From Paludibacteraceae bacterium (GTDB lineage: Bacteria; Bacteroidota; Bacteroidia; Bacteroidales; Paludibacteraceae): DNA of 64,000 nt. Below, piece by piece: positions 3,454 through 61,867 of the stretch. The DNA lies in contig JAFSTB010000014.1 in assembly GCA_017450685.1 (NCBI GenBank), positions 25,028-89,027 of the forward strand, read 5' to 3'. Both the position numbers and the translations under genes were made by a program. The notes below the pieces were generated by a model. It was not told where the DNA came from. It did not search any database and saw nothing but the letters and a program-made list of their open reading frames with translations. Every line of letters starts with the position of its first letter. Position 1 is the stretch's first letter.

Positions 3454-6400
3454 TTACAGCACTGTCCATTTCTTGGTAAAGGTCTTACCCCCTTCAGATG
3501 TGAAGTGCAAGATATAAGTACCGGTGGGAACGGATGAGGGTAGGTTGATTTGCAGGTTGCTGTATCTATCTCCGTATTGTCCTTTAGCCACTTGCTTGCC
3601 ATCTACGCCATAGACATAATACTGACCTGATGTGTTGGTGCGGATAGATATATGTCTGTACTCGTTTTTGTTTTGCGCAGCGAGCGAGAGGTAGAGGTTC
3701 ACCTCGGTGTCATCAACCATTTCTATCGGGTAGTAGTAGCAAGTGCGCATTGTCTTACCGTCGTCAATGCGTGTTAATTCAGCCCAATAGGGGTCGCCTA
3801 TCTGCAAGGGTTCATATACATATCCGTTATGTTCGCCTTGTGCCTGCATTGTTTCGCCGTCGTGATACCATTGTATCTTGGAGAAGTCATAGCCTCCGTT
3901 GTAGGTGGCGTTCTGCACAAGAAGTACATCGTTCCACCGCTGCAAGATGACCCATTGAGGATAGAAAACGGAGAAGTGCAAAGTGGTATCTAACGAGTGG
4001 TTGAAGATATCTTCTATATGTACCATAACAGGATAGATATCCGGTCGGACATATAGAGTGGAGTCGTCGTTGGCAGGCATCGGTATGGTGAACACCACAG
4101 GTGAGGATATGTCATCGGGGAAGTGCATTCCTATCGTATCGCGGAAGCCTGCTTTTCGTGCTGCGGCATCGAAATAGAGGTCGCATCTTGCCGGTTTACC
4201 TTCCGCGATATGGAAGGTGATAGCCCAATCTTTGTCGTTAGCGCATGCCTCGTCTATATATGCGTCCATCACCACTTCGGGGTCGAACATTTGGATGTTG
4301 AGCGTATAGATGATACTGTCACATCCGTTGGCGTAATAGGCTGTATCGTGATAGATGCCCGAAGTGAGTATGTTCTCATATCCGTCGTGTCCGAGCCAAT
4401 GGTAGTGCTCGATGGAACTGATTGTAGCTTCTTCGTTCGATTCGGTGGCACGCAGTACAACCAGAGTGAGCGAATAGTGGGTATCGGGGTCTGAAAAGTC
4501 CTCATATACACCGTTATCCGTTATGTTGTCATATCCTGTGTGTCCCGTCCATTGGTATGGAAGGTCTGCTTCGCATACGGTGTCACGCTCTTCAATGAGT
4601 ATAGGATCGGTGCGTGGTATGACGGTGAGTGTTAACTCTTCGATGAGCATACAGTGTGTACCTGTCTCATAGGTTGTATCGCGATAGGTGTCAGCCTCTG
4701 TGAGGTTGCGATTGCCGAACCTGTATGTCTCACCTTCGGTGATGGTCTTGTCGGTATAGACAACGGGTGCAGGCAACATAGTGAGGGTGAGGGTGACGGT
4801 GGAGTCGCACTTACCTTCGCGTTGGAAGGTATGAGTATATACACCGGCGCTGGTGATTGGTTCATCGGCGAACATATATTGTCCGCCTTCGCAGAAGTTG
4901 TCTGCCACTTCTATTTCGGTGGCTTCACCGATAGTGAAAGTGAGAGTGGCAGTACTGTCGCAACCTGCGGCATTGGTATAGTGGTGTGTATAAACGTCGG
5001 CTTGTGTTATCTTTTCATCGTCGAACATGAAGGATTCACCTTCGCACACTTTGACGCTGAAGGCGTAGGCTGAAGGTTCGTTGACCACCAGATCCATTGT
5101 TACGAGGCTATCGCAACCCATATGGTTGACATAGTGTTTCTCATAGTGTCCGGCAGTGGTGAGGGTGGTATCGCACCATGGGAGTTGCTCACCTTTACAT
5201 ATAGTTCGGCTCATAGCATTGAGTGAGGGTTGAGCTACTTTAAGGTGTAATGTGATGGTGCTGTCGCAGTTAGCGGTGTTGGTGACTATCTGAGTGTAAT
5301 AGTTTTCCTCTGTGAGCGGAGTGCCGAAGAAGTAATATTTCTCGCCTTGGCAGATGGTCTCTTCTCTTTGTGCTTGAGTTGCTTTATTGACAGTCAGATG
5401 CAGTGTTACTATACTGTCGCACCCCGTGCTGCTTGTCAGTTGGTCTTGCACTTCGCCTTCACCTGTGAGTTCGTGTCCGTGCCAATAGAAGGGCAACTCA
5501 TTGTCGCATATAGTGGCGAAGGTGTCTGTTTGGGCAAAAGAGAGGACAAAGAAATGCAGGGTAATGATACTATCGCAACCTTGATAGCCGGTATAGTGGC
5601 GAACATAGGTGGCAGGTGTATTCACTGTCGTATCGCTGAATTCGTATGCTCCGCCTTCACATACAGCACGCGAGAGCTCTATATGTACAGGTTTGTTCAC
5701 CACCAGATCCATAGTGAGCAGGCTATCGCAACCTGCTGCATTGACAAGGTGTCGTTCATAGTGTCCGGCTTCGTATAGTTTGTCGCCACACCATTCCAAA
5801 GTGTCACCTTTGCATATAGTGTCGCGCATATTTTTGGTGGTTGAATGTAGCACTGTGAGCGTGAAGGTGACGGTGCTATCGCAGCCGTTTTGCGAAGTGT
5901 AGGTGTATTGATATTCACCTTCTGTTTCCAATTTACGCGAGTCCCACATATACGGCAGCATATAGTCGCATACGGTGTCTCTGTCGGTGGTGTTAAAAGT
6001 AGGCAGTACTGTTAGGTGCAGGCATACGGCGGAATCGGTGTTGAAATGCGACAAGGTATGGAAGGTATAGTCGCCTTGTGTGGTACAAACGGTGTCGGCT
6101 GTGTTGTTGAACGTGCGCCATGTGTAACTCTCGCCTTCGCATATAGAGGCATATTGGTGTGTAGCACCTTGTACGACATATAGTGTGAGTATATGTATGC
6201 TGTCGCAATAGGGTGCTTTGACCGTCTTGAGTGAGTCGTAAACGATGAGTGTGTCTATATGGTCGGATGAGAGTGTTTTTCCGTGCCATAGGTATTCGTC
6301 TCCTATATTGGTATAGGCTGTCTCTTTGATACGGTTATCCACCTGATGTGACCCTTCCACTGAGAACTCATAGTAGGCAGCGTAGGCTTTGACTTGTAGA

Positions 6401-8718
6401 TATTCCAAGGTGTAATATATACTATCGCAGCCGTTGGCGGTACGCATTGTGTCGCGATAGGTGCCGAAGTCGGAGAGCAACTCAAAGTCTTCATTGTTGT
6501 TATGTTCGGTGAAGCCCGGTATGAACCACGACTGCCCTTCGAAGACATTGCCGCACTGCAAGATAGTGTCGGGTGTCATGGTGACGGGTCGCACAACACG
6601 CAGAGAAAGGGTGTAGTAAGCACTGTCGCAACCGTCAGACACGGTGCGTACCGTATCTTTGTAGGTATAGGTATTATCCCCTGTGCGGCGAGAGGGTAGG
6701 GTGTCTTTTACTATGACAGTATGTGCGGCTGCCGTTCCCGATGCAAAAGTATATGACCATCCTTCACTCAGGTTGTTCAACTCATTTTCGCACACCGTTT
6801 GTGCTGAGTTGTCGGTTGAAATGGTGATAGTCTTAGCCACCATATATGTATTCTCTTCGCATCCTTGTGCCGAGGTGGTGGTATAGACACCTTGTGTACC
6901 TCCATTGATGTAGAGGTCGGCTTCGGACAGGATAGTCTCGGTGTGGCTTTTGTAGTGCCAAACGTATGGGAAGGAGCAGACGTGCACACTGTCGTAGTAC
7001 GTCTGTGCCGGCAGAACGGTCAGAGCGAGTGTGACGATGGAGTCGCAGTCTTTGACTGTTTTGAGCGTTACCTGCTTACCATTATCTCCTGCACCGGTGA
7101 TAGTGATACCGTTCCACTTATACGGTTCGGCGAGGTGCAACTGATTTTCGCAGACGGTGACAGGCTCTGTCACAGCATAAGAGGGATTGATAGTGAGATG
7201 ATAGGTGATAGTGGAATCGCAGTTGGTGTACTGTGTCTTACGCGCTTCCACTGCATCCATTGTGATAGTGGTGTTGGACTTAGCGGGTTTGGCTTGTGCG
7301 AAGGTATGCTCAGCCCATAAAGCGTCCACTTCCGTATCGCAAATGGTCAGTGTCTGTTCGTTATTATATGTTTGGTTGACGGTCAGTTGCAGCGGATAGA
7401 TAGTGCGAGGGCATCGCATACCGGTGCTGCTCAAGGTGGTGTAGTATTGTGTGGTGTCGGTGTATAAGCCTGAGGTTGTGAGGTTTTGGAATTTAGCGTG
7501 TCCTCGCCAACTATATGGTGTGTCGTCGCAGGTGCTGACGGCTGTCAGTGTTCTTATAGTGGGTATTTGTACGGTGAGTGTAAGGTGTGTGGTGCTGTCC
7601 GTCTCACCGTCGGCGGCTTTGCAGGTGTAATCGTAAGTGCCTGCTGCAGTGCACTCAATGCCGTTCCAAAGGAATGGTAACTCACATTCGCAGATGGTGA
7701 GTGCCTCATTGGCTTCTTTGCCACAGTCCGCAAAATTAGCCACGACGGTCATCTCACGGTCGAGCATTGTCAGCGAATAGGTGCCGTCACCGTTGTTCTT
7801 GACCAGCGTTGCATCCGCACCTGTCCAACCACGGAAACAGGTGTTGGCATCATTGGGAACGGGAGTGAGAGTTATCTCTTCATCGGTGATATGCATTTCG
7901 CAATCAGGCGATACGTGCAGTGTGCCGTTGCCAACGGTGGATGTGTTGAGACGGAAGACATCGGTGTTGACTTTTCTTCCTATAGTGACTAATGTCTCGC
8001 CACAGTCTTTTTCGTTGATTTCTATATACAGTTTGCCGCCTTCTCCTTCACCGACCAATATCTCTGCTCCGTTAAAAGCGGTGATATATTCGGTGCAACC
8101 GTAGTTGTAGTAGTAATGCGGGTCTAATGCCGGACCGCCGTATGTGGAGCAATATGAACTTACGGGACACACCCACACACTGCCTTTATCTTCATTCCAA
8201 AAAGAGTGTGTGGCATATCCCAAAAGCATCGGCTTGTCGCTTGGAGGCAAAACGGTACTTGTCCAACTATAGATAGAATAGGAAGTATTATAATTTATAT
8301 ACTTTGCTATGTTTAGTGCAGAGACTTCATAAATGCCTGCTTTCGGACCTAAGCAGTTGGCATATTGTTGTGTTTTGCCGGCTGTAGTACTTCCGCACCA
8401 GAAAAACATCTGTATATAGTTGTGCTTATTGGCTGAGCGTGACGACCAGGCACGAATGCGTATGAACTTATTATATATCCAGTCGGATGGCGGAATGGCA
8501 ACACCGGTTCTCGGATCATACCCGTTGTATTGCATCCAATAGTCGTCATCCACTGTTGTGTAGGTGTCGATCTGCACATTATCCATTTCGTAGAGGAACT
8601 GGTCTAATGAACCTTTTCTTTCCACCACAGGACAACAATTCTGTGCGGATACGGTGTATCCGTAATTGAGGAAGGTCAGGCAATATATGAAAGCAAGAAA
8701 GAGGTAGTTTCGTTTCAT
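3454..8718 (-). CDS. Giant Cys-repeat surface protein with T9SS-type sorting tail
   Basis: 1754 residues from the ATG at 8718. That start gives a clear signal peptide (MKRNYLFLAFIY... ending in VSAQ); the frame stays open to 9090, but that extension overlaps dapB and its promoter. Domains in order: a unique N-terminal region (about residues 25-335) with many Tyr, Trp and Cys; about 20 repeats of 45-70 residues (about 336-1478), each opening with [TV][IV]C.(N/G)EL/ES and closing with GCDSIVTLxLTV; a C-terminal module (RWNDVL, YNGG, QWYHDG, DDGKTMRTC); and a final about 70 residues ending in KTFTKKWTVL, resembling a T9SS type A sorting domain. It is probably exported across the outer membrane and anchored or released at the surface. 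Its function is unknown; adhesin or matrix protein is inference. Two relatives lie at 48391-56394. Confidence 0.88.
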   Translation of the reverse strand: MKRNYLFLAFIYCLTFLNYGYTVSAQNCCPVVERKGSLDQFLYEMDNVQIDTYTTVDDDYWMQYNGYDPRTGVAIPPSDWIYNKFIRIRAWSSRSANKHNYIQMFFWCGSTTAGKTQQYANCLGPKAGIYEVSALNIAKYINYNTSYSIYSWTSTVLPPSDKPMLLGYATHSFWNEDKGSVWVCPVSSYCSTYGGPALDPHYYYNYGCTEYITAFNGAEILVGEGEGGKLYIEINEKDCGETLVTIGRKVNTDVFRLNTSTVGNGTLHVSPDCEMHITDEEITLTPVPNDANTCFRGWTGADATLVKNNGDGTYSLTMLDREMTVVANFADCGKEANEALTICECELPFLWNGIECTAAGTYDYTCKAADGETDSTTHLTLTVQIPTIRTLTAVSTCDDTPYSWRGHAKFQNLTTSGLYTDTTQYYTTLSSTGMRCPRTIYPLQLTVNQTYNNEQTLTICDTEVDALWAEHTFAQAKPAKSNTTITMDAVEARKTQYTNCDSTITYHLTINPSYAVTEPVTVCENQLHLAEPYKWNGITITGAGDNGKQVTLKTVKDCDSIVTLALTVLPAQTYYDSVHVCSFPYVWHYKSHTETILSEADLYINGGTQGVYTTTSAQGCEENTYMVAKTITISTDNSAQTVCENELNNLSEGWSYTFASGTAAAHTVIVKDTLPSRRTGDNTYTYKDTVRTVSDGCDSAYYTLSLRVVRPVTMTPDTILQCGNVFEGQSWFIPGFTEHNNNEDFELLSDFGTYRDTMRTANGCDSIYYTLEYLQVKAYAAYYEFSVEGSHQVDNRIKETAYTNIGDEYLWHGKTLSSDHIDTLIVYDSLKTVKAPYCDSIHILTLYVVQGATHQYASICEGESYTWRTFNNTADTVCTTQGDYTFHTLSHFNTDSAVCLHLTVLPTFNTTDRDTVCDYMLPYMWDSRKLETEGEYQYTYTSQNGCDSTVTFTLTVLHSTTKNMRDTICKGDTLEWCGDKLYEAGHYERHLVNAAGCDSLLTMDLVVNKPVHIELSRAVCEGGAYEFSDTTVNTPATYVRHYTGYQGCDSIITLHFFVLSFAQTDTFATICDNELPFYWHGHELTGEGEVQDQLTSSTGCDSIVTLHLTVNKATQAQREETICQGEKYYFFGTPLTEENYYTQIVTNTANCDSTITLHLKVAQPSLNAMSRTICKGEQLPWCDTTLTTAGHYEKHYVNHMGCDSLVTMDLVVNEPSAYAFSVKVCEGESFMFDDEKITQADVYTHHYTNAAGCDSTATLTFTIGEATEIEVADNFCEGGQYMFADEPITSAGVYTHTFQREGKCDSTVTLTLTMLPAPVVYTDKTITEGETYRFGNRNLTEADTYRDTTYETGTHCMLIEELTLTVIPRTDPILIEERDTVCEADLPYQWTGHTGYDNITDNGVYEDFSDPDTHYSLTLVVLRATESNEEATISSIEHYHWLGHDGYENILTSGIYHDTAYYANGCDSIIYTLNIQMFDPEVVMDAYIDEACANDKDWAITFHIAEGKPARCDLYFDAAARKAGFRDTIGMHFPDDISSPVVFTIPMPANDDSTLYVRPDIYPVMVHIEDIFNHSLDTTLHFSVFYPQWVILQRWNDVLLVQNATYNGGYDFSKIQWYHDGETMQAQGEHNGYVYEPLQIGDPYWAELTRIDDGKTMRTCYYYPIEMVDDTEVNLYLSLAAQNKNEYRHISIRTNTSGQYYVYGVDGKQVAKGQYGDRYSNLQINLPSSVPTGTYILHFTSEGGKTFTKKWTVL
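4285..7710 (-). repeat. Array of about 20 Cys-containing protein repeats in the surface protein
   Basis: At protein level each unit has the pattern xxxIC-x2-ELPYxWxG, 20-40 variable residues, then GCDSxVTLxLTV. The paired cysteines (one near the start, one in the CDS motif) recur in most units; two or three units late in the array have lost the first or second cysteine. DNA identity between units is low to moderate, so this is an old array. Unit boundaries are approximate, read by eye. Confidence 0.8.
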
Positions 8719-37823: not shown

Positions 37824-38507
37824 TTACGGACACGTGCGGCACACTTTCTTATCTTTGAAGAAGGCTATTGCCAATCCGGCTACCAATTGCCCCGTTACAT
37901 CCATATTCATCACATTAGCCCCGTTTAAGCCATACGTGTTGCTATACTCACTGATGTTCTCTAAGTTATCCCCGAAATAGACATCATGTTCCCATGCCAA
38001 ATGCACTGTCAGATGTTCCGTACACCGCCATTTCATACCCACGATGAACGGCAGATAGCCTGACACTTTTTTGAAACTTGAATGTGTACTCACTCCTATG
38101 CCCAATGCTATGTACGGTGTTATGGGACTGATACGGCTGTCGTAGCGCATCTTGCCGTAGGGTAGGAAGTTGAATTCCGTCACCACGTCCACGTTCACCA
38201 ATCGGTTGGTCCACATACCCTTGCTCTTATCAGCAAAACCCGTGCCATCCGGCAGATAACCCGTTATTCGCTGTGTCATACCTTTGGCGCGTAACGACCA
38301 GCGACGGTCAAACTGATAGCGGAAATACAATCCATACACTTCTCGCACATTTTGGAAAATACGACGACCGGCATCACCAACATAATAACCGCAACCACCG
38401 TCTATACCTAACTCGATATGATAAATACGGTGATCCACTTGCGCAGTAACTGTGGCAATACCCACAAAAAGCAGTAATAGGATATTTATCAGCCGTTTCG
38501 TTGACAA
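37824..38507 (-). CDS. porG: PorG-like outer membrane protein (DUF6089 type), T9SS accessory
   Basis: 227 residues from the TTG at 38507, giving the signal peptide LSTKRLINILLLLFVGIATVTAQ. An upstream in-frame ATG (38549) lies inside the -7 box of the perfect promoter on this strand, and so cannot be transcribed; GTG at 38525 is the other option. The mature protein is a small beta-barrel: IELGIDGGCGYYVGD, LYFRYQFDRRWSLRAKG, and near the end HLAWEHDVYFGDNLENIS. This family includes P. gingivalis PorG, which is needed for T9SS; its order porG-uppS-bamA-skp is the same. The last residues KKVCRTCP are Cys-rich. T9SS cargo is encoded elsewhere in the window. Confidence 0.8.
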   Translation of the reverse strand: MSTKRLINILLLLFVGIATVTAQVDHRIYHIELGIDGGCGYYVGDAGRRIFQNVREVYGLYFRYQFDRRWSLRAKGMTQRITGYLPDGTGFADKSKGMWTNRLVNVDVVTEFNFLPYGKMRYDSRISPITPYIALGIGVSTHSSFKKVSGYLPFIVGMKWRCTEHLTVHLAWEHDVYFGDNLENISEYSNTYGLNGANVMNMDVTGQLVAGLAIAFFKDKKVCRTCP

Positions 38508-38523
38508 GGTCTTATATGATTGC

Positions 38524-38578
38524 ACCTTTGTGCGCACAATAGCGCACAAAGGTACGGCATTTATTTCGCTTACGCAAA
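38524..38578 (-). promoter_or_regulatory. Promoter of porG with a perfect 12-bp palindrome
   Basis: On the minus strand TTTG (38578-38575), a 20-base gap, TACCTTTG (38554-38547). A perfect inverted repeat with 12-bp arms (38524-38535 and 38542-38553) and a 6-base spacer covers the -7 box and the predicted start of transcription. Its arms contain GTGCGC/GCGCAC. Confidence 0.78.
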
Positions 38579-48271: not shown

Positions 48272-48319
48272 ATAAATTGCGCAATTGTTTGCGCAATTTA
48301 TCATTTTTCCATAACTTTG
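48272..48319 (+). promoter_or_regulatory. Promoter with perfect 12-bp palindrome upstream of the surface-protein operon
   Basis: TTTG at 48288-48291, a 20-base gap, TAACTTTG at 48312-48319. A perfect inverted repeat (arms 48272-48283 and 48290-48301, 6-base loop, arm sequence ATAAATTGCGCA) covers the -33 box. A repressor or activator site is likely. The predicted leader is about 65 bases to the ATG at 48391. Confidence 0.75.
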
Positions 48320-48390
48320 CCGCCTAATGTGATATAAAGGAATCGCATCTTTGTACTTAAAACTGGAAGAATCTAATTATAAAAGTGTTA

Positions 48391-51300
48391 ATGTTTCGCA
48401 AATTAGTTAATATTGTATTAACGCTCTTGCCATTTCTTTTTTATAGTATGGATATATGCTCTCAAAATATATCTGTACACTTTGACTATAACGAGATGTT
48501 AGATACTCAGGTTGAACCATATCGTTCTGATGGATATTGGTATTTTTGCAATAATTTAGTTATAGTGTCTGCAAAAAAAGCAAATGGTGATGGAATTCAG
48601 TTGGATTTCAATAGAGAGACTGATGACTATTATTATGGATATGATAGAGGTTGTACTAATGACAGAGAGATGGATGGTCCGGTGGCAGATACATATCCGT
48701 TATATAAATCGCAAGTTCAAAATTTAAATGGCACCTATGCTTGGGTATGTCCGAGTGTAGATGCTGTATTAGTGTATAATGAGCAACAAGTCCGAATAAA
48801 TGGTCGCAATCAAACTATGAAGACCGGTGTTTATTCAGCAGTTAAGGTTAATGGTACTACTTATTATATTAGATATGGATCTGTTCAAGTGTCTCAAAAT
48901 AACGTTGAAGGAATGTTCATCGAGTCCGTAGGAGTTAGAGATTATAACAATACACGGGATATTTACTTTACCATAGGCAATCGCTCTGAGCAAAGCCATA
49001 CTTTTGATAACGGTAAATTGACGAATAATGGTTCGACTTTTACAATGTCCGGTAATGATGGTTCCACAAATACTAATATTTCCATAAACAAAACATTAAC
49101 CACTGGAAGTTCAATATTTACTAAAACTAATGTAAATTTAGCAAATACTTCTCTTATATACGAAGGGAATACTATAGCCATATCTGATGTTTCCGGAAGC
49201 ATAGATTATGATGGCAAAAATTGCACGATGCGTGCTACCATTAGAGATAGTAGAGAAAATGTATATTGCCTGACATTAGTGAAAAATACTAATGCTATTG
49301 AGTACAACGACACTATTTGTGCGGGTGATGTGTATGATATTGACGAGTTGATTGATAGGCATGCTGATGTGGATTGTCCGGTTGCTGAATTGGCATTACT
49401 CACCGAAACACCTTACACTCCCAACCCTAACAAGCGAATAGATAAGAGCGCTGTATGGTCAGGCACTATCTATAATAACGACGATGAAGAGGTGGAGTGT
49501 GTAGTCAATGTATATACCATCTCGGTCAATAACACGACGGAAAGTAAGACCTTCTGCTACGATGAGGACGACCTGACGGAGATAACTGCTTTCTGGAACA
49601 GTCATACCCTCGTTGACCCTTCAACAGGCAATGCCGTAGCCCTGCCGACAGGCATAACAGCGAAAACTCAGATAACGGCTGAGGAAAAGAAAAACACCAC
49701 TATCGGCACTTACACCTGCACCTCAACCACCACTTACAATATCACCATCATCCCTGTTAACAAGACCACTGATACACAGTGGATATGCAGCACGGAATTG
49801 GCCATTGACGGCTTTGAGTGGCACGGCAATGTATATTATGCCAAACCGGCGGTGGCACCCACATACAGCACCACCAATGCCGACGGCTGCAACGACATAA
49901 CCGTTTTGGACTTAAACGTTTGTCAAGCACAGACCTTTATCGACACCAAAACCGTTTGCTCATTATCGACATTCTCCTACGTTTGGGATCGTAAGTCGTC
50001 GGCGGTGACCAACAAGACGCAAGCCGACATTAAGACCTTCACCTACGAAGGGACAACATACAACGTTGTTGACTCACTGTTCGTTGCTAAGACTGATTGT
50101 GGTGAGGCTTATTGCGAGGATGCCTACTATCTGGCAGTACAGTCCTTGTCAGACCCGCTGCAGTTTGTTCAGTCAGCCGTGATATGTGCCACCGAGTGGG
50201 ATGACCTCTCAGGCGGGTATGTACATACTTTTGCCAATAGTCATACTATCACTGTCACCGATACTCTGGCAGGAGAGAAAGTAGGTATTGACACCTATCG
50301 TTATCGTGATACGGAGCAGAACACCGATGGCTGCGATATAGCCCATTATACTCTCGATCTGCGGGTGGTGCGACCTCGTACAATGCAGACCGACACTATA
50401 CGTCAGTGTAGTAATGATATGGAGGCTAAGTCGTGGCTCATTGACGGTTGGGCAGAGCATAACGACAAAGAGGAGTTCCAATGGTTGGAAGCAGCTGTGT
50501 CGAAAGCCGATACGATGTACTACGACACACTGCGCAACGCTGCAGGCTGTGACAGTATATACTACTCGCTGTGTTATATTCAAGACACTGCCTACGTTGA
50601 GACACCTGCCTCTTTTTTTACCCCTTATTCCGACTACCGCAAGAAAGATACCGTCTATGTTAATCTCAACACCGCCTATACATGGGAGGGCAGACCGCAA
50701 GCCACTGACAAGGAGGGTGTCTTTACCGATCAGGTGGTTCTTTCCTCGTCGCACGGTTGCGACAGTGTGCGCGTACTCACTCTATGTGTGCTGCAAAGCG
50801 AAGAGCATATCTATCAAACCGTATGTGCCGGCGATATGCCTTACATTTGGCAACACACTGACGGTGCAGACAACACCTGCTATTCCGCCGGCATTTACGA
50901 ATACAACTCAAAGACTTGGCAGAATACCGACTCGACGGCTATCCTGCACTTGACAGTGCTAACACCCGTTGATAGCACATATAGCAAGGCTATAATGGCA
51001 GGCGATACCTATAACGATAGTCACTTCGCCGGTCTGACCGCTGCCGACACTTACACTACTTCACTCAAGTACGACAACACCGACTGCGACAGCGTTGTCT
51101 ATCGTTTGACACTCACTATCACCCAGCCCGAAGTGAAGGACACCGAATATGCCGTCATCTGTTCCAATGAGGGCGGGTATGAATGGAAGATTGACAATTG
51201 GACTGAACATAATCTGAAGTTCGACCACGTGTTGGAAGCCGGACGGTACCTTGATACCCTGCGTTCAGTGACCGGTCGAGACAGTGTATATTATTCGTTG

Positions 51301-54126
51301 CAACTGACCGTCTATCCCGCCTACACACTGCAAAACGGCGTTACGCCGGAATACGATGTCGATTCGCGCGTGCGCGATACTATATATATAAACAAAGGTG
51401 ATACCTACTATTTTGAGTCGCTTGATCAGGTGCTGGACGAAGAAGGTACATATATAGGTTTCGACAAGACCCGTATCACCCACTGCGATAGCGTCACTAT
51501 CCTCACGCTATATGTGCTTAATAATAAGGAAGATGTCCATGCAACTATCTGTTCTGACGCACTACCGTATATATGGCAACACACCGACGGAGAAGATGGT
51601 GTGTATAACGCATCAGGCGACTATGAATATCTCACTCTGACTACTCACGGCACCGACTCCATCGTCACACTTCATCTGACTGTCAATACCGCCTACAACT
51701 TAACCGACGGCGCAACAATATGTTACAGCGAGTTGGCTGATTTCCGCTGGGGTGATGTTGCTTTCACCGATGTGATAACCGACAACACCGGCTCTACGCA
51801 GACAGCCACCAAAGTGAAGACCTTTACCACTGTATGCGGCTGCGATAGTATAGTGACCTATACCCTCACCGTCAAACCTACTTTTGAACTTACCGACCAA
51901 GCCACTATATGCTATAATGAATTAGCCGATTTCCGTTGGGAAGGAGAGTCCTTCACCGACCTAATAACCGACAACACAGGTGTTCGTCAGACAGCCATCA
52001 AAACCAAGACCCTGAACACGGTCAACGGCTGCGATAGCATAGTTGCTTTCACTCTGACAGTCAATCCTATAAAGAGCGGTGTCGATCAAGTCACTATCTG
52101 CTCGTCTGAGTTGCCCTATCGCTGGAATGGCTACACCATCGCTTCGGCGGCTGATGCTGAAGGCAAGAATATCATACTCACCACCACTGACGGTTGCGAT
52201 AGCGTGGTGTCGCTTGCACTCACCATTAACAATGCCTACACCGACATAACCGACGATGCCACAATCTGTTATAATGAGTTAGCCTCTTTCCGTTGGGAAG
52301 GTGAGGCTTTCGACGGACTGATAACCGCCAACACCGGCACCATACAGACGGCTACACTGACCAAGACATTGACCACGGTTGCCACCGATTGCGATAGTAC
52401 CGTCACCTTCACTCTGACTGTCAATCCGACCTTCGCTGTGGAAGATGGTGCCACTATATGTTATAGCGAACTGGCTTCCTTCACTTGGGAAAATGAGACC
52501 TTTACCGACCTTATCAGTAGCAACACCGGTAAGACGCAACAAGTGACGAAGACGAAGAACCTCACTACCGTCAATGGCTGCGATAGCATAGTCAGTTTCA
52601 CGCTAACCGTTCATCCTACCTTCGAACGGAGTATGACACAGACGATATGCGATAGCGAACTGCCATATACCATCGGTCAGGAGGTGTTCACCAAAGGAGA
52701 GACACGAGTACTCAACCTTAAGTCGGTGAACGATTGTGACAGTATCGTGACCATCACCCTCGTTGTCCTTCCCACCTACACCGGCATAACCGACGGCACT
52801 TCTATCTGTTATGATGAGTTAACCTCTTTCCGTTGGGAGGGTGAGACGTTCAGCGGACTGATAACCGCCAACACCGGCACCACACAGACGGCTTCACTGA
52901 CTAAGACACTACGCACCTATAATGACTGCGATAGTACCGTCACTTTCACCCTTACCGTCAATCCGACCTACGAGGTGACCGATGCACGCACAATTTGCGA
53001 AAGTGAACTGCCCTACCGTTGGGAAGGCAATGTGTTCAACACCGATGCCACACGCACACAGACACTGACAACAGTCAATGGCTGCGACTCAATAGTACAT
53101 TTCTCTTTGACGGTGCAACGCACAACGATAAAGACCCTCTCCGACGAGGTATGCGACAATAAGTTGCCATACGTATGGACTACCTATCACGAACAATATC
53201 TGACCGAAGCAGGTACATACAGAGACGTGGAAAAGAGCAGCATGGGTTGCGATAGCGTCATACATATACTCAACCTATCCGTCTTCTCAACACCCGTCAT
53301 TGGAAATGCCGTTGTGGCTAATCAGAATATATGTCCTGACAAAGAGAACCTGCAGATAGAGTTCACTTACACCTATGGCAGACCAAACACCTACGAAGTA
53401 GTGTTCGATGCCAATGCCATCGAGCAGAACTTCACCGATCAAGAAGGTGTCATCTTAGCCAACGGTACTACCTATATCAATGTAGGTATTCCGTATGATG
53501 TCACTTCCGATTATAATACCTATCCGAAAGCCGACTACTATAACGCAACACTGCGAGTGACCGACCAATGTGAGAAAGTGACCGAATATCCGTTGTCCTT
53601 CACTCTTTTATACCCCGCTTCACTCATCAAACAGAAATGGAACGACGTGCTGGCTATCTACAACGAGAAATATAACGGCGGTATGACCTTCTCCAATATC
53701 CGTTGGTATCACAATGGCAATTATGTTGTAGGTCAAGGCGATAACCACTCGTATATATATGAGACACCTCATCTCTCTTATGGTGAGCCTTATTGGGTTG
53801 AACTAACACGCGCCGACGACGGTAAGACTTTCCGCACCTGCGAGTTCTACCCCGAACAAAAAGCCTCTGCTCCTGAACGCAACGGCGAACGTGTACGCAT
53901 AAGACAAGAAGAGCAGAACAACAGCCGAACCATCCTTATCGAAACAGATATAGAAGGAACGTATATGGTGTATGATATCACCGGCAAACAGTTGCAGAAG
54001 GGTAGGTTTAACAACCTTACTGACAACCATATACGCCTTGATAGATATTGCACCGAAGGTACTTATCTGATCTATTTCCGCGGAGATGAGGGTGAGACGG
54101 AAGTGAAGAAGTGGTTAGTAAAATAA
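48391..54126 (+). CDS. Giant Cys-repeat surface protein with T9SS-type sorting tail (second locus)
   Basis: 1911 residues from the ATG at 48391 (a GTG two codons earlier is less likely). Signal peptide to about residue 27 (FYSMDICSQN). Residues 28-300: a unique Tyr/Asn-rich region encoded by AT-rich DNA (20-33 GC bases per 60 less than later). Then about 21 repeats (about 307-1633), of which units such as TICYNELADFRWEGESFTD ... GCDSIVAFTLTVNP form a closely related subset; the C-terminal module KQKWNDVL, YNGG, NIRWYHNG, DDGKTFRTC; and a tail with YDITGKQLQKGRF ... EVKKWLVK like a T9SS type A sorting domain. It is the first gene of an operon with three other envelope genes. Role unknown; an adhesive or structural surface fibre is inference. 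Confidence 0.88.
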   Translation: MFRKLVNIVLTLLPFLFYSMDICSQNISVHFDYNEMLDTQVEPYRSDGYWYFCNNLVIVSAKKANGDGIQLDFNRETDDYYYGYDRGCTNDREMDGPVADTYPLYKSQVQNLNGTYAWVCPSVDAVLVYNEQQVRINGRNQTMKTGVYSAVKVNGTTYYIRYGSVQVSQNNVEGMFIESVGVRDYNNTRDIYFTIGNRSEQSHTFDNGKLTNNGSTFTMSGNDGSTNTNISINKTLTTGSSIFTKTNVNLANTSLIYEGNTIAISDVSGSIDYDGKNCTMRATIRDSRENVYCLTLVKNTNAIEYNDTICAGDVYDIDELIDRHADVDCPVAELALLTETPYTPNPNKRIDKSAVWSGTIYNNDDEEVECVVNVYTISVNNTTESKTFCYDEDDLTEITAFWNSHTLVDPSTGNAVALPTGITAKTQITAEEKKNTTIGTYTCTSTTTYNITIIPVNKTTDTQWICSTELAIDGFEWHGNVYYAKPAVAPTYSTTNADGCNDITVLDLNVCQAQTFIDTKTVCSLSTFSYVWDRKSSAVTNKTQADIKTFTYEGTTYNVVDSLFVAKTDCGEAYCEDAYYLAVQSLSDPLQFVQSAVICATEWDDLSGGYVHTFANSHTITVTDTLAGEKVGIDTYRYRDTEQNTDGCDIAHYTLDLRVVRPRTMQTDTIRQCSNDMEAKSWLIDGWAEHNDKEEFQWLEAAVSKADTMYYDTLRNAAGCDSIYYSLCYIQDTAYVETPASFFTPYSDYRKKDTVYVNLNTAYTWEGRPQATDKEGVFTDQVVLSSSHGCDSVRVLTLCVLQSEEHIYQTVCAGDMPYIWQHTDGADNTCYSAGIYEYNSKTWQNTDSTAILHLTVLTPVDSTYSKAIMAGDTYNDSHFAGLTAADTYTTSLKYDNTDCDSVVYRLTLTITQPEVKDTEYAVICSNEGGYEWKIDNWTEHNLKFDHVLEAGRYLDTLRSVTGRDSVYYSLQLTVYPAYTLQNGVTPEYDVDSRVRDTIYINKGDTYYFESLDQVLDEEGTYIGFDKTRITHCDSVTILTLYVLNNKEDVHATICSDALPYIWQHTDGEDGVYNASGDYEYLTLTTHGTDSIVTLHLTVNTAYNLTDGATICYSELADFRWGDVAFTDVITDNTGSTQTATKVKTFTTVCGCDSIVTYTLTVKPTFELTDQATICYNELADFRWEGESFTDLITDNTGVRQTAIKTKTLNTVNGCDSIVAFTLTVNPIKSGVDQVTICSSELPYRWNGYTIASAADAEGKNIILTTTDGCDSVVSLALTINNAYTDITDDATICYNELASFRWEGEAFDGLITANTGTIQTATLTKTLTTVATDCDSTVTFTLTVNPTFAVEDGATICYSELASFTWENETFTDLISSNTGKTQQVTKTKNLTTVNGCDSIVSFTLTVHPTFERSMTQTICDSELPYTIGQEVFTKGETRVLNLKSVNDCDSIVTITLVVLPTYTGITDGTSICYDELTSFRWEGETFSGLITANTGTTQTASLTKTLRTYNDCDSTVTFTLTVNPTYEVTDARTICESELPYRWEGNVFNTDATRTQTLTTVNGCDSIVHFSLTVQRTTIKTLSDEVCDNKLPYVWTTYHEQYLTEAGTYRDVEKSSMGCDSVIHILNLSVFSTPVIGNAVVANQNICPDKENLQIEFTYTYGRPNTYEVVFDANAIEQNFTDQEGVILANGTTYINVGIPYDVTSDYNTYPKADYYNATLRVTDQCEKVTEYPLSFTLLYPASLIKQKWNDVLAIYNEKYNGGMTFSNIRWYHNGNYVVGQGDNHSYIYETPHLSYGEPYWVELTRADDGKTFRTCEFYPEQKASAPERNGERVRIRQEEQNNSRTILIETDIEGTYMVYDITGKQLQKGRFNNLTDNHIRLDRYCTEGTYLIYFRGDEGETEVKKWLVK
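49309..53290 (+). repeat. Array of about 21 Cys-containing protein repeats, partly duplicated at DNA level
   Basis: Units of 45-70 residues ending in CDSxVTxxLTV. Two segments, around 52269-52420 and 52809-52960, are nearly identical DNA exactly 540 bases (180 codons, three units) apart, so the array has recently grown by block duplication. Unit boundaries are approximate. Confidence 0.8.
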
Positions 54127-54138
54127 ATTTCACACTAT

Positions 54139-56394
54139 ATGAAACGCTCAATCGTTAAATGTTTGTTGATAGGAGCATTGTTCTCCTCCGGGTTAGTGCA
54201 GCGTATTGATGCACAGTGTTTGGATATGAGTGATCTTGGCAGCAAAAGCACTTTTGCCATACGTTGCTTCGATTATCATTTAGTGAAAAAAAACAACGGA
54301 GATATGGAGATGTTCTCTTGGGTGGATACCGACGGAGCCGTCACTTGGTCGCCTGACGATCACCCACGGCAGACCTACATATCTCAGATGGGCAAAGACG
54401 ACTGGTGCAACGAACTGAACACCTTGTATAAGGAGGGGACACAGAGTATTCGTATCGCCACCAACGAATATAAGGAAACAGATATGGCATTAGGTGCCGC
54501 CTGTGCCAACTATATAGACATAACGGAAGATAACTGCCTTATCTATGTTCACTATGCAGCCGTGATGCATAACCCGGGTCATGAGATAGCGTCCCAACCC
54601 GGATTTGAGGAATTTGCGCAGCCGAACATCAAGTTCACCGTTACCAACTGGAAACCCGACGGCAAATCGCAATTGGTGTCTTGCCCTTACCTCTATCTCT
54701 ATTCCAATATAGAGGCAAAGAAAGATGATTGGCACAAAGCCAAAGATGCTGCCGGCAAAGATATCATCTGGCACGATTGGACCACCGAATTGTTCGATTT
54801 CTCATCGTTCATAGGTGAGCGTATGATCATCCAAGCCACTGTTTTAGACTGCTCCGAATCAGACTACGATTCTAAAAACAGACGTATCACTCTGTGCACC
54901 GACCGCCACCGCGCACGCGTCTATTATACCATCGAATGTGCACCCAAACAGATAGTCAGTGAAGGTGCTTGTGCAACAGCCGACAGTATGTATCTCACTG
55001 CACCTGACCTGTATAAAGGCTATCGCTGGTACAACAAACAGACACCCGAACAGACTCTGAGCGAACAACAAACGTACGCTTTCGTAAGAGACAAAGCCGA
55101 CGCTACTTACGTCTGCGAACTGACCGATATGTGCGACAATAAGACACAGATAGAACAGCTCGTCTATGCACCGCGATATGTGGATGTTGTGCCCGATGAG
55201 TTGCATTTCGGTGAGATCTACGAATGGCATATCACAGTGGGCGGACAAGATGTGCTCTACAACACCTATACTCACTCAACAAAAGATACAATGCGTGTTA
55301 AACACGTGGGCACCGAGTGCGATAGTATCATCTATTGCCTTGATTTACATATCAATGGTGACCCGTGCGAACTGATAGAGATTGAGCATATACAAGATAA
55401 GGTGTCGCTCGAAGGAGAGTCCGAATATCTGTGGGAACGCAACGGTCAGACCTACTACCAGTCAACGAAAGATACCTTCGTGCTGAAAAGCCAATACGCT
55501 TGCGACAGTATCTACTATTATCTCGACTTGCAGATGTCGGCAACAGGCGCTTTCCGCTTTGTGGAACAAGAGGTATGTGCCGACTCGGCTCACCTGCTCA
55601 TCGAGTCGCTTAATAACGAAGTGCCCATACTGACTTACTCACTGTCCTTCGACAATAAGGCTCAAAAAGCAGGGTTTATAGATGTGCCGGAAACAGTAAT
55701 GCCCGCCGATAACATCATCGTCATTGATATGCCTGTTGACGCTGTTTTAGACACCGACAATAAGTCATATACACGTCCGGGCAAATATAGTGTCACCATT
55801 ACGGAAACCAACTCCTTAGGTGAGACACACGAACATAACCTATCCTTCTCCATCCTTTACCCCTCTGCCATCATCGGGCAAAGATGGAACGATGTGCTCT
55901 ATATCCTTAACGACCAATATAATGGCGGCTATGAGATAAGTCGCGTCAAATGGTATAAGAACAACGATATCGAACTGCCTTCTCGCGGTACACACGGTGC
56001 CTACTACTCAGAGAGTTATATCAATGGCAACTACGAGGAGAAAGAGTTTAATTTCATCGACACCTATTACGCAAAAATAACCCGAAGCGGCGAAAGCGAA
56101 GAAGTATGTACCTGCCGACACACTCCCAAACAACAAACGGGAGATATGAATGATACAGAGGTGGTAGAGATAACACCTGCCTTAGTAGGAGCACGCCGCG
56201 CTATCAACATCAGTGCTAATAGCAACGGTGTCTATCGACTGTATGATATAAGCGGCAGATGCTTACAATCAGGCGATTATACTAATGCTCAGCATAATAC
56301 TATCGTATTGCCCGCCGCTGCAAAAGGTACATTCATCTTACTCTTGCAACCGGACAATGGCAAACAAGTGTCCAAAAAACTGATGATTGATTAA
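54139..56394 (+). CDS. T9SS-sorted surface protein, short relative of the giant repeat proteins
   Basis: 751 residues. Signal peptide to about residue 26 (VQRIDAQ). A unique N-terminal part (about 27-280) with Cys and Trp, including FDYHLVKKNNGDMEMFSW and DWTTELFDFSSFIGER; then only two or three repeat units ending CDSIIYCLDLHI and CDSIYYYLDLQM; then the shared C-terminal module (GQRWNDVL, YNGG, VKWYKNN) and a sorting tail (RLYDISGRCLQSGDYT ... KKLMID). Starts 12 bases after the giant gene's stop, so co-transcribed. It reads like a shortened version: same ends, few repeats. It could cap or anchor the long protein (inference). Confidence 0.86.
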   Translation: MKRSIVKCLLIGALFSSGLVQRIDAQCLDMSDLGSKSTFAIRCFDYHLVKKNNGDMEMFSWVDTDGAVTWSPDDHPRQTYISQMGKDDWCNELNTLYKEGTQSIRIATNEYKETDMALGAACANYIDITEDNCLIYVHYAAVMHNPGHEIASQPGFEEFAQPNIKFTVTNWKPDGKSQLVSCPYLYLYSNIEAKKDDWHKAKDAAGKDIIWHDWTTELFDFSSFIGERMIIQATVLDCSESDYDSKNRRITLCTDRHRARVYYTIECAPKQIVSEGACATADSMYLTAPDLYKGYRWYNKQTPEQTLSEQQTYAFVRDKADATYVCELTDMCDNKTQIEQLVYAPRYVDVVPDELHFGEIYEWHITVGGQDVLYNTYTHSTKDTMRVKHVGTECDSIIYCLDLHINGDPCELIEIEHIQDKVSLEGESEYLWERNGQTYYQSTKDTFVLKSQYACDSIYYYLDLQMSATGAFRFVEQEVCADSAHLLIESLNNEVPILTYSLSFDNKAQKAGFIDVPETVMPADNIIVIDMPVDAVLDTDNKSYTRPGKYSVTITETNSLGETHEHNLSFSILYPSAIIGQRWNDVLYILNDQYNGGYEISRVKWYKNNDIELPSRGTHGAYYSESYINGNYEEKEFNFIDTYYAKITRSGESEEVCTCRHTPKQQTGDMNDTEVVEITPALVGARRAINISANSNGVYRLYDISGRCLQSGDYTNAQHNTIVLPAAAKGTFILLLQPDNGKQVSKKLMID

Positions 56395-56400
56395 AGGAGG
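56393..56400 (+). promoter_or_regulatory. Strong Shine-Dalgarno sequence deciding the OmpA-family start
   Basis: AAAGGAGG at 56393-56400. The ATG at 56409 is 8 bases after it, ideal spacing, while the ATG at 56403 is only 2 bases away. So the start is set at 56409. Confidence 0.7.
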
Positions 56401-56408
56401 ATATGGAT

Positions 56409-57863
56409 ATGAAAAACAATACGACTATGCGTAAAGTCATTTCAATAATGTTGTTAGCCACCCTGTCGTTGGCATTTGCTCAGGCCGAAGAGGCAACGTC
56501 TGTAACCATCAATGCCCACCAACAGGCTAAGCAAGAATGGAATAAACCCGTTCACTATTTCGGCATCGGACTCAAAGCCGGTTATAGCCAGTTCAGTCAA
56601 GGTTTTAACAAGTCGGACAACCAACATCTGCTCAATAGCAGTATGAAAGTGCCGGGTGGAGCAAACGCCGGACTGGAGCTGAAATATAAACTGGAATACA
56701 AATTGTTCCGCTTCACCGTCGGAGTGGATGCCACCTATGCCGGAAGTAGTATGAAAGGTGATATAGCATATCAATACGGAATGCTTAAACCTTCAACGGA
56801 TATGACCTACTTCTATAACTTCGGCAGTATGAAAGAGCAACAACATACATTTGAGGTAGGCGTACCTATTATGTTCGGTGCTAACTTCCGTGGCTTCTAT
56901 GCTATGGCAGGTATGCGTATAGGACTGCCGGTGATGAAAACCTATACCCTCAATACCGATATGGAAACAACCATCAAAGACCATCGCGGTATTGACATAT
57001 ACACCGATATGGAAAACCATAAGTTGGTGACACGCTCGTATAAGAACAGCGATAAGGGTCTGAACATCAGTATGATCAACCCGCAGGTGGCTTTGGAGGT
57101 AGGATATAATCTCGACCCCTTCATCAAACGCAATAATCAGTTCGAATGGAAACCCGGAGCCAAACCTTCCTTCGCCCAATTGCTGCACTACGAGATAGCA
57201 CTGTATGCCAACGTCGGCGTGATGAACTACCACAAAAACAGCGAAGACCGCAATCAGTTCTTCGAACTCAACGACGACAAAGTGTCGGTCAAAGATATCC
57301 ACTCACTCACCGACGATGCTCAACTCAAGAAAGGCAATCTGCTGCCGTGGAACATAGGCGTTAAGTTCAGCATCTACTACGAACGCTACAACAAACCTGT
57401 GGAGAAAGTGGCACGCAAACGCCGTCCAAGACCAAAGAAAGAGAAGAAAGAAGAAGTGATACAAGTAGTGGAAGAACCCAAAGATACCATCGTATATAGC
57501 GGCGAAACAATACAGAAAGGTGATACCATCATTATGGATAACCTCTACTTCGATACCGATAAGAGTACTATCCGCAGCGCCAGCGATGCGTCGCTCAACG
57601 AGTTGGCTTCACTGCTGCAATCACACCCCACAATGAAGATCACACTCGTAGGTCACACCGATAATGTGGGTAAAGCCGACTATAATATGCGACTCAGTAA
57701 AGCCCGCGTCGAAAGCGTACGCAATGCCCTCATACAGAGAGGCATAGACGGCAACCGCATTAAGACCGTAGGAAAGGGTATGACCGAACCTATTGCAGAT
57801 AATAAGACCAAAGAAGGTCGCGCACAAAACCGCCGCGTGGAAATAGTGATTGACGAGGAATAA
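56409..57863 (+). CDS. OmpA-family outer membrane protein with N-terminal beta-barrel
   Basis: 484 residues. Signal peptide (about 1-28 after MRKVISIMLLATLSLAFAQA). Barrel region (about 45-345) with alternating aromatic strands such as HYFGIGLKAGYSQF; then a Lys/Arg-rich linker (RKRRPRPKKEKKEE) and a complete OmpA C-terminal domain (about 380-484): NLYFDTDKSTIRSASDASL, LVGHTDNVGKADYNM, LSKARVESVRNAL, GRAQNRRVEIVI. The OmpA domain binds peptidoglycan, so the protein ties the outer membrane to the wall. In an operon with two T9SS-sorted proteins it may help to assemble or hold them at the surface (inference). The strong SD suggests high translation. Confidence 0.88.
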   Translation: MKNNTTMRKVISIMLLATLSLAFAQAEEATSVTINAHQQAKQEWNKPVHYFGIGLKAGYSQFSQGFNKSDNQHLLNSSMKVPGGANAGLELKYKLEYKLFRFTVGVDATYAGSSMKGDIAYQYGMLKPSTDMTYFYNFGSMKEQQHTFEVGVPIMFGANFRGFYAMAGMRIGLPVMKTYTLNTDMETTIKDHRGIDIYTDMENHKLVTRSYKNSDKGLNISMINPQVALEVGYNLDPFIKRNNQFEWKPGAKPSFAQLLHYEIALYANVGVMNYHKNSEDRNQFFELNDDKVSVKDIHSLTDDAQLKKGNLLPWNIGVKFSIYYERYNKPVEKVARKRRPRPKKEKKEEVIQVVEEPKDTIVYSGETIQKGDTIIMDNLYFDTDKSTIRSASDASLNELASLLQSHPTMKITLVGHTDNVGKADYNMRLSKARVESVRNALIQRGIDGNRIKTVGKGMTEPIADNKTKEGRAQNRRVEIVIDEE

Positions 57864-57921
57864 GAATTCAACCGATTAACTACCTATAATCAATATCTCA
57901 GAATAGATAACAACAACAGAT

Positions 57922-58872
57922 ATGAATACAAAAAAATGTTTAGTCTTGCTCTTCTCTGCAATGCTGACACTCACAGCATTGGCTGAAGGCAATTTAGGAG
58001 CGCACAATTTCATTATTTGGGCTAACGGTGGAGTCACCAACTATGTAGGCTCTATTCCTAACGCCACCTCACAATTAGGCGGTGGCGGCGGATTAGGTCT
58101 CGGCTACGAATGGCGCGACCAGATCTTCCTCCTCCAAACAGGTTTGGGCTTTAGGTATGCCCAGTCAGGCTTCAAATGTGACTATATGGTATATGAAGTG
58201 CCGCAATGTACCGACTCCGAAGGCGATGCTCTTACCTACCAGTACCTCGAACGGGGAAGAAAAGACCAATATACGCAACTCACAGCACAGATACCTCTCT
58301 TAGTGGGAGCACACTTCTCCTATTTCTACTTCCTCGGCGGTGCTAAAATCAATATCGACGTTATGCGTAAGGCAGAAGTGAAGGCTAACTATGCCACACA
58401 AGGTGTCTATGACATACTCATCGACCCGCTGGCAAACATGAACAACCACCGGTTCTATACCAATGTGCCGCTCTCTACCACCAACAAATCGTCACTCAAA
58501 GCCAATATAGCCGCTTCGCTTGAGATAGGTGCTGAGTTCAATCTGGGTGAAACACGCAGCGGCGACACCTTTATGCGTGTGGCTGCCTTTGCCGACTTCA
58601 ACATGCTCGACGACAGAAAAACATCCTCATCGTCTATGCTGCGTATGGGCAACGTGCCCCGTATGAACGTTGACAGAGAAGATATGATGAAATATGTGTC
58701 GCAACAAGACTACCTCAACTCCTCAACGGCTGAAAATGCTATACGACAACTATATGCCGGTGTCAAACTGACCGTCCTCTTCTCTACCGATGTCAAGTAC
58801 GGATGCGTTGTTTGTCAAGGTGGCTATCCCTCACGCCGTGACCTCAGACGTGGTAGCCGTATTCAACACTGA
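57922..58872 (+). CDS. Outer membrane beta-barrel protein
   Basis: 316 residues with a signal peptide (KCLVLLFSAMLTLTALAEG). The mature protein has barrel-like alternation: FIIWANGGVTNYVGS, GGGLGLGYEWRDQIFLLQTG, IPLLVGAHFSYFYFLGGAKI, IAASLEIGAEFNLGE and RQLYAGVKLTVLFS. A C-terminal extension includes CVVCQGGYPSRRDLRRGSR, basic and with two Cys, possibly facing the periplasm. It has no OmpA domain. Follows the OmpA-family gene by 58 bases; the operon ends at a hairpin 28 bases later. Its family is not clear to me; partner of the surface proteins is inference. Confidence 0.78.
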   Translation: MNTKKCLVLLFSAMLTLTALAEGNLGAHNFIIWANGGVTNYVGSIPNATSQLGGGGGLGLGYEWRDQIFLLQTGLGFRYAQSGFKCDYMVYEVPQCTDSEGDALTYQYLERGRKDQYTQLTAQIPLLVGAHFSYFYFLGGAKINIDVMRKAEVKANYATQGVYDILIDPLANMNNHRFYTNVPLSTTNKSSLKANIAASLEIGAEFNLGETRSGDTFMRVAAFADFNMLDDRKTSSSSMLRMGNVPRMNVDREDMMKYVSQQDYLNSSTAENAIRQLYAGVKLTVLFSTDVKYGCVVCQGGYPSRRDLRRGSRIQH

Positions 58873-58900
58873 TAATGTGTCCGCTTCAACAACAAGAAAG

Positions 58901-58930
58901 ACAAGGCTCACGCAATGACGTGAGCCTTGT
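58901..58930 (+). terminator. Terminator hairpin of the surface-protein operon
   Basis: Perfect 12-bp stem: ACAAGGCTCACG (58901-58912), loop CAATGA, CGTGAGCCTTGT (58919-58930). No T-run follows, but the stem is strong. The remaining bases to 59073 hold nothing I can assign. Confidence 0.75.
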
Positions 58931-60689: not shown

Positions 60690-60691
60690 AT

Positions 60692-61858: not shown

Positions 61859-61867
61859 AAAGCAGAT

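What the first reader, a model, noticed from the sequence alone, without database searches (positions are those of the whole stretch)
48272..58930. Surface operon: giant repeat protein, short relative, OmpA-type barrel and second barrel under one promoter
Seen: four co-directional genes with signal peptides and small gaps (12, 14 and 58 bases), one promoter and one end hairpin. Two products have T9SS-type tails, one binds peptidoglycan through an OmpA domain, one is a plain barrel. Inferred: a surface assembly in which the barrels anchor or export the long protein. The related giant at 3454-8718 has no such neighbours, so it may use the same partners. This is the best candidate here for an undescribed system.
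Basis: partly seen in the sequence, partly recalled or inferred. Interest (0 to 1): 0.82.

Follow-up and report, generated by a model that had tools for sequence, protein, structure and literature searches.

The report
Surface adhesins with cysteine-tailed barrel partners
In uncultured rumen and gut bacteria, giant repeat-built surface proteins are often encoded right beside their own outer-membrane barrel proteins, whose tails carry a pair of cysteines like the pair that in a gliding bacterium hooks adhesins onto a moving track, so these bacteria may hold or even move adhesins in a similar way with different parts.

Summary
The four genes are real: giant (48391-54126), short relative, OmpA-tailed barrel and second barrel (57922-58872), behind one Bacteroidetes-type promoter. 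The order tail gene, OmpA-barrel, barrel recurs in 10 relatives. The commoner unit is smaller: a protein with a type IX secretion (T9SS)-type tail beside a barrel of the 57922-58872 family. The window's genome holds four more such pairs, and the association spans many genera of the family. The barrels end in a twin cysteine after the last strand (64 of 67 in the genus sample; 17 of 486 other ORFs), like SprF and PorG of Flavobacterium johnsoniae, which are disulfide-bonded to the GldK track. This genome's PorK keeps the reactive cysteine. Yet the barrels are neither PorP/SprF nor PorG by any sequence test, and the tails look type A, not type B. OmpA-tailed homologues lack the cysteines (0 of 15). 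Best reading: cognate carriers with two alternative periplasmic tethers, peptidoglycan (OmpA) or PorK track (cysteines), working like SprB-SprF but built on another barrel family. Order, linkage and motif are shown; binding, export and movement are inferred.

The parts
48272..48301 (.). inverted repeat overlapping the -33 promoter element
48288..48319 (+). Bacteroidetes-type promoter match TTTG-N20-TAACTTTG (consensus recalled)
   Evidence: 11 matches in the window, 1.02 expected
48391..54126 (+). giant surface protein, 1911 aa, 18 repeat hits, pre-tail domain (WNDVL region) and T9SS type A-like tail
54139..56394 (+). short relative, 751 aa, same pre-tail domain and tail, one repeat hit
56403..57863 (+). 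OmpA-tailed barrel, 486 aa; barrel part homologous to the next gene; no C-terminal cysteines
57546..57833 (+). OmpA (peptidoglycan-binding type) domain of that protein, residues 382-477
57922..58872 (+). twin-cysteine outer-membrane barrel, 316 aa
58804..58815 (+). codons of the twin-cysteine motif C295-V-V-C298 behind the last strand
   Evidence: both columns invariant in two chosen alignments of 26
58901..58930 (.). hairpin between the operon and the convergent AraC-type gene
3454..8718 (-). related giant with the same tail type and no barrel neighbour
37824..38549 (-). PorG of this genome, C-tail KKVCRTCP with the same kind of twin cysteine

Best explanation
The locus encodes two T9SS-exported repeat adhesins and two homologous outer-membrane barrels that act as their carriers and anchors. 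The barrel at 57922-58872 takes up the tail region of an exported giant and ties it, through a twin-cysteine periplasmic tail, by a disulfide to the reactive cysteine of PorK on the moving PorK/PorN track. The barrel at 56403-57863 does the same with a static tether, its OmpA domain bound to peptidoglycan. Many giants in these genomes have a private twin-cysteine barrel; giants without one may share a lone copy. Shown: gene order, repeated linkage, co-divergence, near-invariant twin cysteine, its absence from OmpA-tailed homologues, presence of PorP-K-L-M-N, PorG and the PorK cysteine. Inferred: export by T9SS, carrier role, disulfide to PorK, and any movement.
For: Linkage: 28 of 67 non-OmpA barrels in the genus sample lie directly beside a tail/repeat gene, 14 more beside an OmpA-barrel; 9 of those 28 overlap the tail gene by four bases. 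In the window's own genome all 5 non-OmpA barrels found by BLAST sit in such a place. Family-wide: 59 of 120 listed barrel matches start within 700 bases of a tail match on the same strand, in every case tail first; counts correlate over 61 genomes. Twin cysteine in the last 60 residues: 64 of 67 barrels, 0 of 15 OmpA-barrels, 17 of 486 other ORFs of 200 aa or more, 4 of 102 of these with signal-like starts, 9 of 65 tail/repeat proteins; in 30 named loci 26 of 27 barrels (the other is cut off) and 0 of 13 OmpA-barrels. Of the family loci fetched, 18 of 18 non-OmpA barrels over 150 bits. Precedent: SprF and PorG C-tail cysteines are disulfide-bonded to GldK Cys343 (PMC12635249: abstract, passages, first part of the Discussion). 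PorK of this genome aligns KGCF onto P. gingivalis PorK Cys356 (position counted by hand); 15 of 15 genus PorK ORFs found in 20 stretches have that cysteine. The genome's PorG ends in the same CxxC type, as do 9 of 9 genus PorG tails read. Co-divergence: tail-barrel Mantel r 0.90 over 27 pairs, re-pairing within genomes as high in 11 of 5000. Precedent for a static variant: five F. johnsoniae operons with a PorE homologue, a type B substrate and a SprF-like shuttle (PMC12618676 Discussion).
Against: No binding, export or localisation datum exists. The barrels are not PorP/SprF or PorG by Pfam, NCBIfam or profile comparison. The tails match type A, for which the known shuttle is PorV (PorV from the abstract of PMC12618676). 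25 of 67 genus barrels have neither kind of neighbour. Several tail proteins have no barrel beside them (3454-8718, two sets on C31, one on C29), and 64 of 123 listed family tails had none within 700 bases. Three genus barrels lack the cysteines; so do, in this genome, a 465-aa barrel beside a repeat giant and a weak 249-aa barrel match with no tail neighbour. Co-divergence can come from inheritance as a block alone, and only 5 genomes with 14 pairs inform the within-genome test. Strand number, hence the periplasmic place of the tail, was not tested.
Confidence: 0.52

Rival explanations
1. The barrels are private carriers or anchors of the giants, but the twin cysteines do something else: an internal disulfide, metal binding or a redox switch in the periplasm. 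Nothing is tied to PorK and nothing moves.
For: Linkage and co-divergence hold without the PorK step. The spacing varies between CxC (13) and CxxC (50) among 65 genus barrels. Three genus barrels lack the motif.
Against: The same genome's PorG has the same CxxC tail and PorK keeps the target cysteine. Number and spacing also vary among PorG tails, of which two were shown to matter (PMC12635249 passages). The motif lies just after the last strand, where SprF and PorG have theirs.
Confidence: 0.22
2. The tail proteins go out by the usual type A route (PorV, PorU, attachment to A-LPS or release); the barrels are separate receptors, porins or adhesin partners that are only co-expressed.
For: Tails match TIGR04183 in 14 of 18 and type B in none. 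Lone barrels and barrel-less tail proteins exist.
Against: Barrels co-diverge with the tail and pre-tail of their neighbour within genomes, and barrel number tracks tail number across genera. An OmpA-tethered homologue sits in the same operons.
Confidence: 0.16
3. Chance or general clustering of surface genes: tail genes and barrels are both common and often fall together.
For: Both families are multi-copy here. The 60 genus stretches were chosen because they hold barrels.
Against: 59 of 120 barrel matches next to a tail match, always tail first, in 27 of 40 genomes; stop-start overlaps; three-gene order conserved in 10 relatives.
Confidence: 0.03

Closest known systems
SprB-SprF of Flavobacterium johnsoniae (type B CTD adhesin with PorP/SprF-family carrier)
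   Same: Giant repeat adhesin (SprB size and repeats recalled) encoded beside its own outer-membrane barrel; twin cysteine in the barrel's C-tail; PorK/GldK target cysteine present.
   Different: Barrel shows no PorP/SprF homology; tails are type A-like; genomes of this genus hold only one PorP/SprF protein each (23 of 23).
PorG (NF052316, DUF6089)
   Same: Outer-membrane barrel with a cysteine C-tail; in this genus the tail is CxxC like most of the barrels'.
   Different: A separate gene in the same genome (window 37824-38549); profile comparison with the barrels gives 4.6% probability over 22 columns, last strand and tail only.
PorE-PorP-PG1035 complex and the five PorE-type operons of F. 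johnsoniae
   Same: T9SS substrate, barrel and OmpA-type peptidoglycan binder go together; proposed static anchor (PMC9143113 abstract; PMC12618676 Discussion).
   Different: Here the OmpA domain is fused to a barrel of the same family as the twin-cysteine barrel; the PorE model NF052230 is far below its cut-off (80.7 against 600 bits).

Membership tests
PorP/SprF family | match to PF11751 or TIGR03519 | tested here: not met
   no hit in P0004 or in 26 aligned relatives at the thresholds used; hhalign 42% over 17 columns only
PorP/SprF family | gene next to a T9SS-tail protein (many members) | tested here: met
PorP/SprF family | twin-cysteine C-tail as in SprF | tested here: met
   not shared by all PorP/SprF proteins (12 of 12 PorP/SprF tails read lack it)
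PorP/SprF family | required for export and anchoring of its partner | not testable with these tools
   needs mutants
PorP/SprF family | fold and number of strands | not tested
   structure prediction switched off
PorG | match to NF052316 or PF19573 | tested here: not met
   in this genome PF19573 finds only the separate gene P0006 (over that cut-off, but 102.6 bits against 130 for NF052316)
Type B CTD proteins | match to TIGR04131 | tested here: not met
   0 of 18 tails at E up to 0.01; one type B match in the whole genome, place not listed
Type A CTD proteins | match to TIGR04183 | tested here: met
   14 of 18 at E up to 0.01; full-length P0001 and P0002 just below the cut-off, P0005 above it
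Type A CTD proteins | carried by PorV and processed by PorU | not tested
   neither gene was searched for; function needs mutants
OmpA family (P0003) | PF00691 domain | tested here: met
   86.6 bits, cut-off 27.2
PorE | NF052230 over cut-off | tested here: not met
   80.7 against 600 bits

The most novel reading that the evidence does not exclude
Uncultured gut and rumen Paludibacteraceae, a group not known as gliders (recalled), hook their giant adhesins by disulfides onto a moving PorK track through a barrel family that is neither SprF nor PorG. They thus have powered surface adhesins, and a static OmpA-tethered twin of the carrier; the two tethers have been exchanged on one barrel fold.
Probability: 0.3. 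Interest if true: 0.9.

Novelty: new variant of a known kind. Interest (0 to 1): 0.72.

Why it matters
In late 2025 the adhesin carrier SprF and the T9SS part PorG were found to be disulfide-bonded to a moving track, which its authors call, to their knowledge, without analogy (PMC12635249 Discussion). Here a third barrel family, unrelated by sequence tests, carries the same kind of tail and is paired many times over with T9SS-tailed proteins, in gut bacteria; the same authors propose that most commensals lost gliding and keep the track only to power export. If right, covalent hooking to the track is a general plug-in, type A-like substrates can have private carriers, and moving adhesins may reach beyond the classical gliders. 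The system may also stand in for the PorP/SprF expansion: in the family, 31 genomes with at most one PorP hold on average 4.4 tail and 3.2 barrel matches, 23 genomes with five or more hold 2.0 and 1.6; but the 7 genomes with two to four hold the fewest (0.4 and 0.1), so the relation is not simple.

Tried and rejected
Rejected: barrel as a PorP/SprF member (no family hit; hhalign 42% over 17 columns); barrel as a PorG expansion (4.6%, and PorG is a separate gene); tails as type B (one of 18 also matches the type C model NF033708). Solved structures gave nothing usable for P0004 (best E 0.069), the barrel profile (best 0.34) or the tail profile (best 0.012, a short stretch of chains named protease, collagenase and PKD domain). 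The VAPB_antitox match in the giant (20.4 bits, cut-off 27.9) is below cut-off. 'GldJ shows gliding' was not adopted: the GldJ-like protein scores 356 bits against a cut-off of 458. The negative relation of tails to PorP number is weak (rho -0.33, P 0.009; by genus -0.40, P 0.02; barrels to PorP -0.24, P 0.06), so 'replacement of SprF' is only a suggestion; the barrel counts there include OmpA-tailed and weak matches. Co-divergence was not taken as proof of binding. Rows dropped: the odd pair L108_3 before the profile comparison and the co-divergence test; the window's own genome, barrel rows weaker than 6e-8, tail rows weaker than about 6e-7, and what searches did not list. The 60 stretches behind searches are the best-placed matches, not all of them; the 26 rows of alignment A1 were chosen by me. 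A first gene list lost two barrels and one OmpA-barrel to overlapping spurious ORFs (L074, L104); it gave 79 barrel genes, 63 of 65 and 0 of 14. One search repeats it with family hits kept first (82, 64 of 67, 0 of 15) and its counts are used here; the tree still rests on the 79. Searches of the paper library (open-licence papers only, listings looked at, three papers opened) showed me no description of twin-cysteine barrels other than SprF and PorG.
Full report
What is there. Four co-directional genes lie at 48391-58872 behind one Bacteroidetes-type promoter match. The first two products share a conserved pre-tail domain (WNDVL region) and a type IX secretion tail with each other and with the giant at 3454-8718. 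The third has an OmpA domain. The fourth has no usable family match of its own, but 7 of 26 aligned relatives match OMP_b-brl_2. The barrel part of the third gene is homologous to the fourth (profile comparison 100%). The genome is a 1.81-Mb draft in 37 contigs, 85.6% complete. Relatives found by protein are titled Paludibacteraceae or uncultured Bacteroidales, many from rumen or gut.

The unit is a pair, repeated. In the same genome BLAST found five barrels without OmpA domain. Besides the window's, they lie beside tail proteins of 694, 2431, 3241 and 2484 residues; in the last case the barrel comes first. Over 67 stretches (window, 6 of its own genome, 60 of same-genus genomes) 82 barrel genes were found: 15 OmpA-tailed and 67 without, of which 28 are next to a tail or repeat gene, 14 next to an OmpA-barrel and 25 next to neither. 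Nine of the 28 overlap the tail gene by four bases. Of the 25, 20 lie between relatives of this genome's metG and diadenylate cyclase genes and one more beside metG (these two gene names are my reading, no family search). A first count (79 genes) had lost three genes; see Tried and rejected. In the tree of those 79, the window's barrel and four orthologues (100/100) join a 24-row group that holds 22 of the neighbour-less barrels (join 99/95), and the OmpA-barrels form one group (97/90). In the window's genome metG and the cyclase gene are adjacent with no barrel between them, so the lone copy seems to have its counterpart in the four-gene operon here.

Gene order. Tail gene, OmpA-barrel, barrel, contiguous and in that order: stretches of 6 of 36 same-genus relatives (L051, L052, L053, L054, L062, L103) and 8 of 30 named loci (L159-L166). 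Four of the latter (L161, L162, L165, L166) have the contig lengths of the former, so 10 distinct relatives. In L159, L164 and L103 the tail gene is cut by the contig end. The mirror order barrel, OmpA-barrel, tail, tail occurs in L074, L086, L100, L104 and L110; OmpA-barrels with a tail neighbour but no barrel next to them occur in L088, L179, L183-L185 and L187.

Reach. In 61 genomes of the same family (33 genera), 46 have the tail domain and 42 a barrel match. Of 120 listed barrel matches outside the window's genome, 59 start within 700 bases of a tail match on the same strand (28 of 75 in frames under 440 aa, 31 of 45 in longer, OmpA-sized ones), in 27 of 40 genomes; 59 of 123 listed tails have such a neighbour. 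Barrel and tail numbers correlate (rho 0.79; by genus 0.86), as type B and PorP numbers do (0.95). Over the order, 30 of 198 genomes have a match, the 29 others all at 110 bits or less.

The cysteines. C295 and C298 are invariant in my 26-row varied alignment at 27% mean identity and in a second one. C-x-C or C-x-x-C in the last 60 residues: 64 of 67 barrels, 0 of 15 OmpA-barrels, 17 of 486 other ORFs of 200 residues or more, 4 of 102 of these with signal-like starts, 9 of 65 tail or repeat proteins. The three exceptions (L100, L104, L110) all sit next to an OmpA-barrel. In the named loci 26 of 27 (the other is cut off). Of family and order loci fetched, all 18 non-OmpA barrels over 150 bits have it (two of them same-genus), one of the weaker ones (L247), and the remaining weaker ones do not. 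SprF and PorG of F. johnsoniae have C-x-C in the periplasmic C-tail, bonded to GldK Cys343 (PMC12635249; I saw the abstract, passages and the first of two parts of the Discussion). This genome has PorP-K-L-M-N together, PorK aligned KGCF onto Cys356 of P. gingivalis PorK (15 of 15 PorK ORFs found in 20 stretches have the cysteine), and a PorG that ends KKVCRTCP. PorG tails read: 9 of 9 in the genus are CxxC; of 8 from other families, 7 have one cysteine and 1 has CxC. A GldJ-like lipoprotein is also present, below the family cut-off.

Not SprF, not PorG, not type B. There is one PorP/SprF protein per genome in 23 of 23 genus genomes and one type B match in the window's genome. Profile comparison finds no relation of the barrels to PorP or PorG beyond the last strand. 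Tails: type A in 14 of 18, type B in none, at E up to 0.01.

Do the partners go together? Over 27 pairs in 18 genomes, tail and barrel distances correlate (last 85 residues r 0.90; pre-tail 0.83); re-pairing within genomes, which moves 14 pairs of 5 genomes, reaches this in 11 and 3 of 5000. This fits cognate pairs but also plain inheritance as a block.

How it most likely works. The giants leave through the T9SS. Each is received by its barrel, which stays as its anchor. The barrel's tail then decides the tether: the twin cysteine to PorK on the track, or the OmpA domain to peptidoglycan. The split into moving and static anchors has a precedent in F. johnsoniae, where static pairs sit in operons with a PorE homologue and moving ones do not (PMC12618676 Discussion; PMC9143113 abstract). 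Here both tether types sit on one barrel family, and in the window in one operon. Everything after gene order and sequence is inference.

Results against. Lone barrels; barrel-less tail proteins; three genus barrels without cysteines; in this genome a sixth pair (C29, 1233-aa repeat protein plus a 465-aa barrel) without the cysteines and a weak 249-aa barrel match with no tail neighbour; and type A-like tails that by known rules should use PorV.

Noticed in passing
window 37824-38549 (-), with 37080-37802, 34423-37083, 33841-34359 and 33269-33766: PorG lies in one run with an undecaprenyl diphosphate synthase, BamA and two OmpH-like genes; its tail has CxxC where 7 of 8 PorG tails read from other families have one cysteine.
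   Followed up: partly
L254:4306-6054 (G000 contig 30): A GldJ-like lipoprotein (356 bits, cut-off 458) besides PorK, in a genome of a group not known to glide (recalled).
   Followed up: partly
L255:6845-11962 (G000 contig 29): Another pair: a 1233-aa repeat protein and a 465-aa barrel, 18 bases apart, whose barrel lacks the twin cysteine and any OmpA hit.
   Followed up: partly
whole window, e.g. 45079-45110, 47612-47643, 48288-48319: TTTG-N18-22-TANNTTTG occurs 11 times against 1.02 expected; some -33 boxes sit in a TTTGCGCAATT or TTTGCACAATT context, at 48272-48301 inside an inverted repeat.
   Followed up: no
L080:8389-9456, L055:10394-11380 and 19 others of the genus sample: A lone twin-cysteine barrel beside metG, in 20 of 21 also beside a diadenylate cyclase gene; candidate shared carrier for giants that lack a private barrel.
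   Followed up: partly
L183, L184, L185, L187: OmpA-barrels of 717-727 residues with tail proteins beside them and no second barrel next to them.
   Followed up: no
L100, L104, L110: Three barrels next to OmpA-barrels have lost the twin cysteine; L100 and L110 end in a similar basic tail.
   Followed up: no
window 60156-63738 (+): Downstream run: cyclophilin-like protein, a hydrolase, an FMN reductase-like flavoprotein and an amidohydrolase with a monooxygenase-type domain, beyond the convergent AraC-type gene 59074-59979.
   Followed up: no
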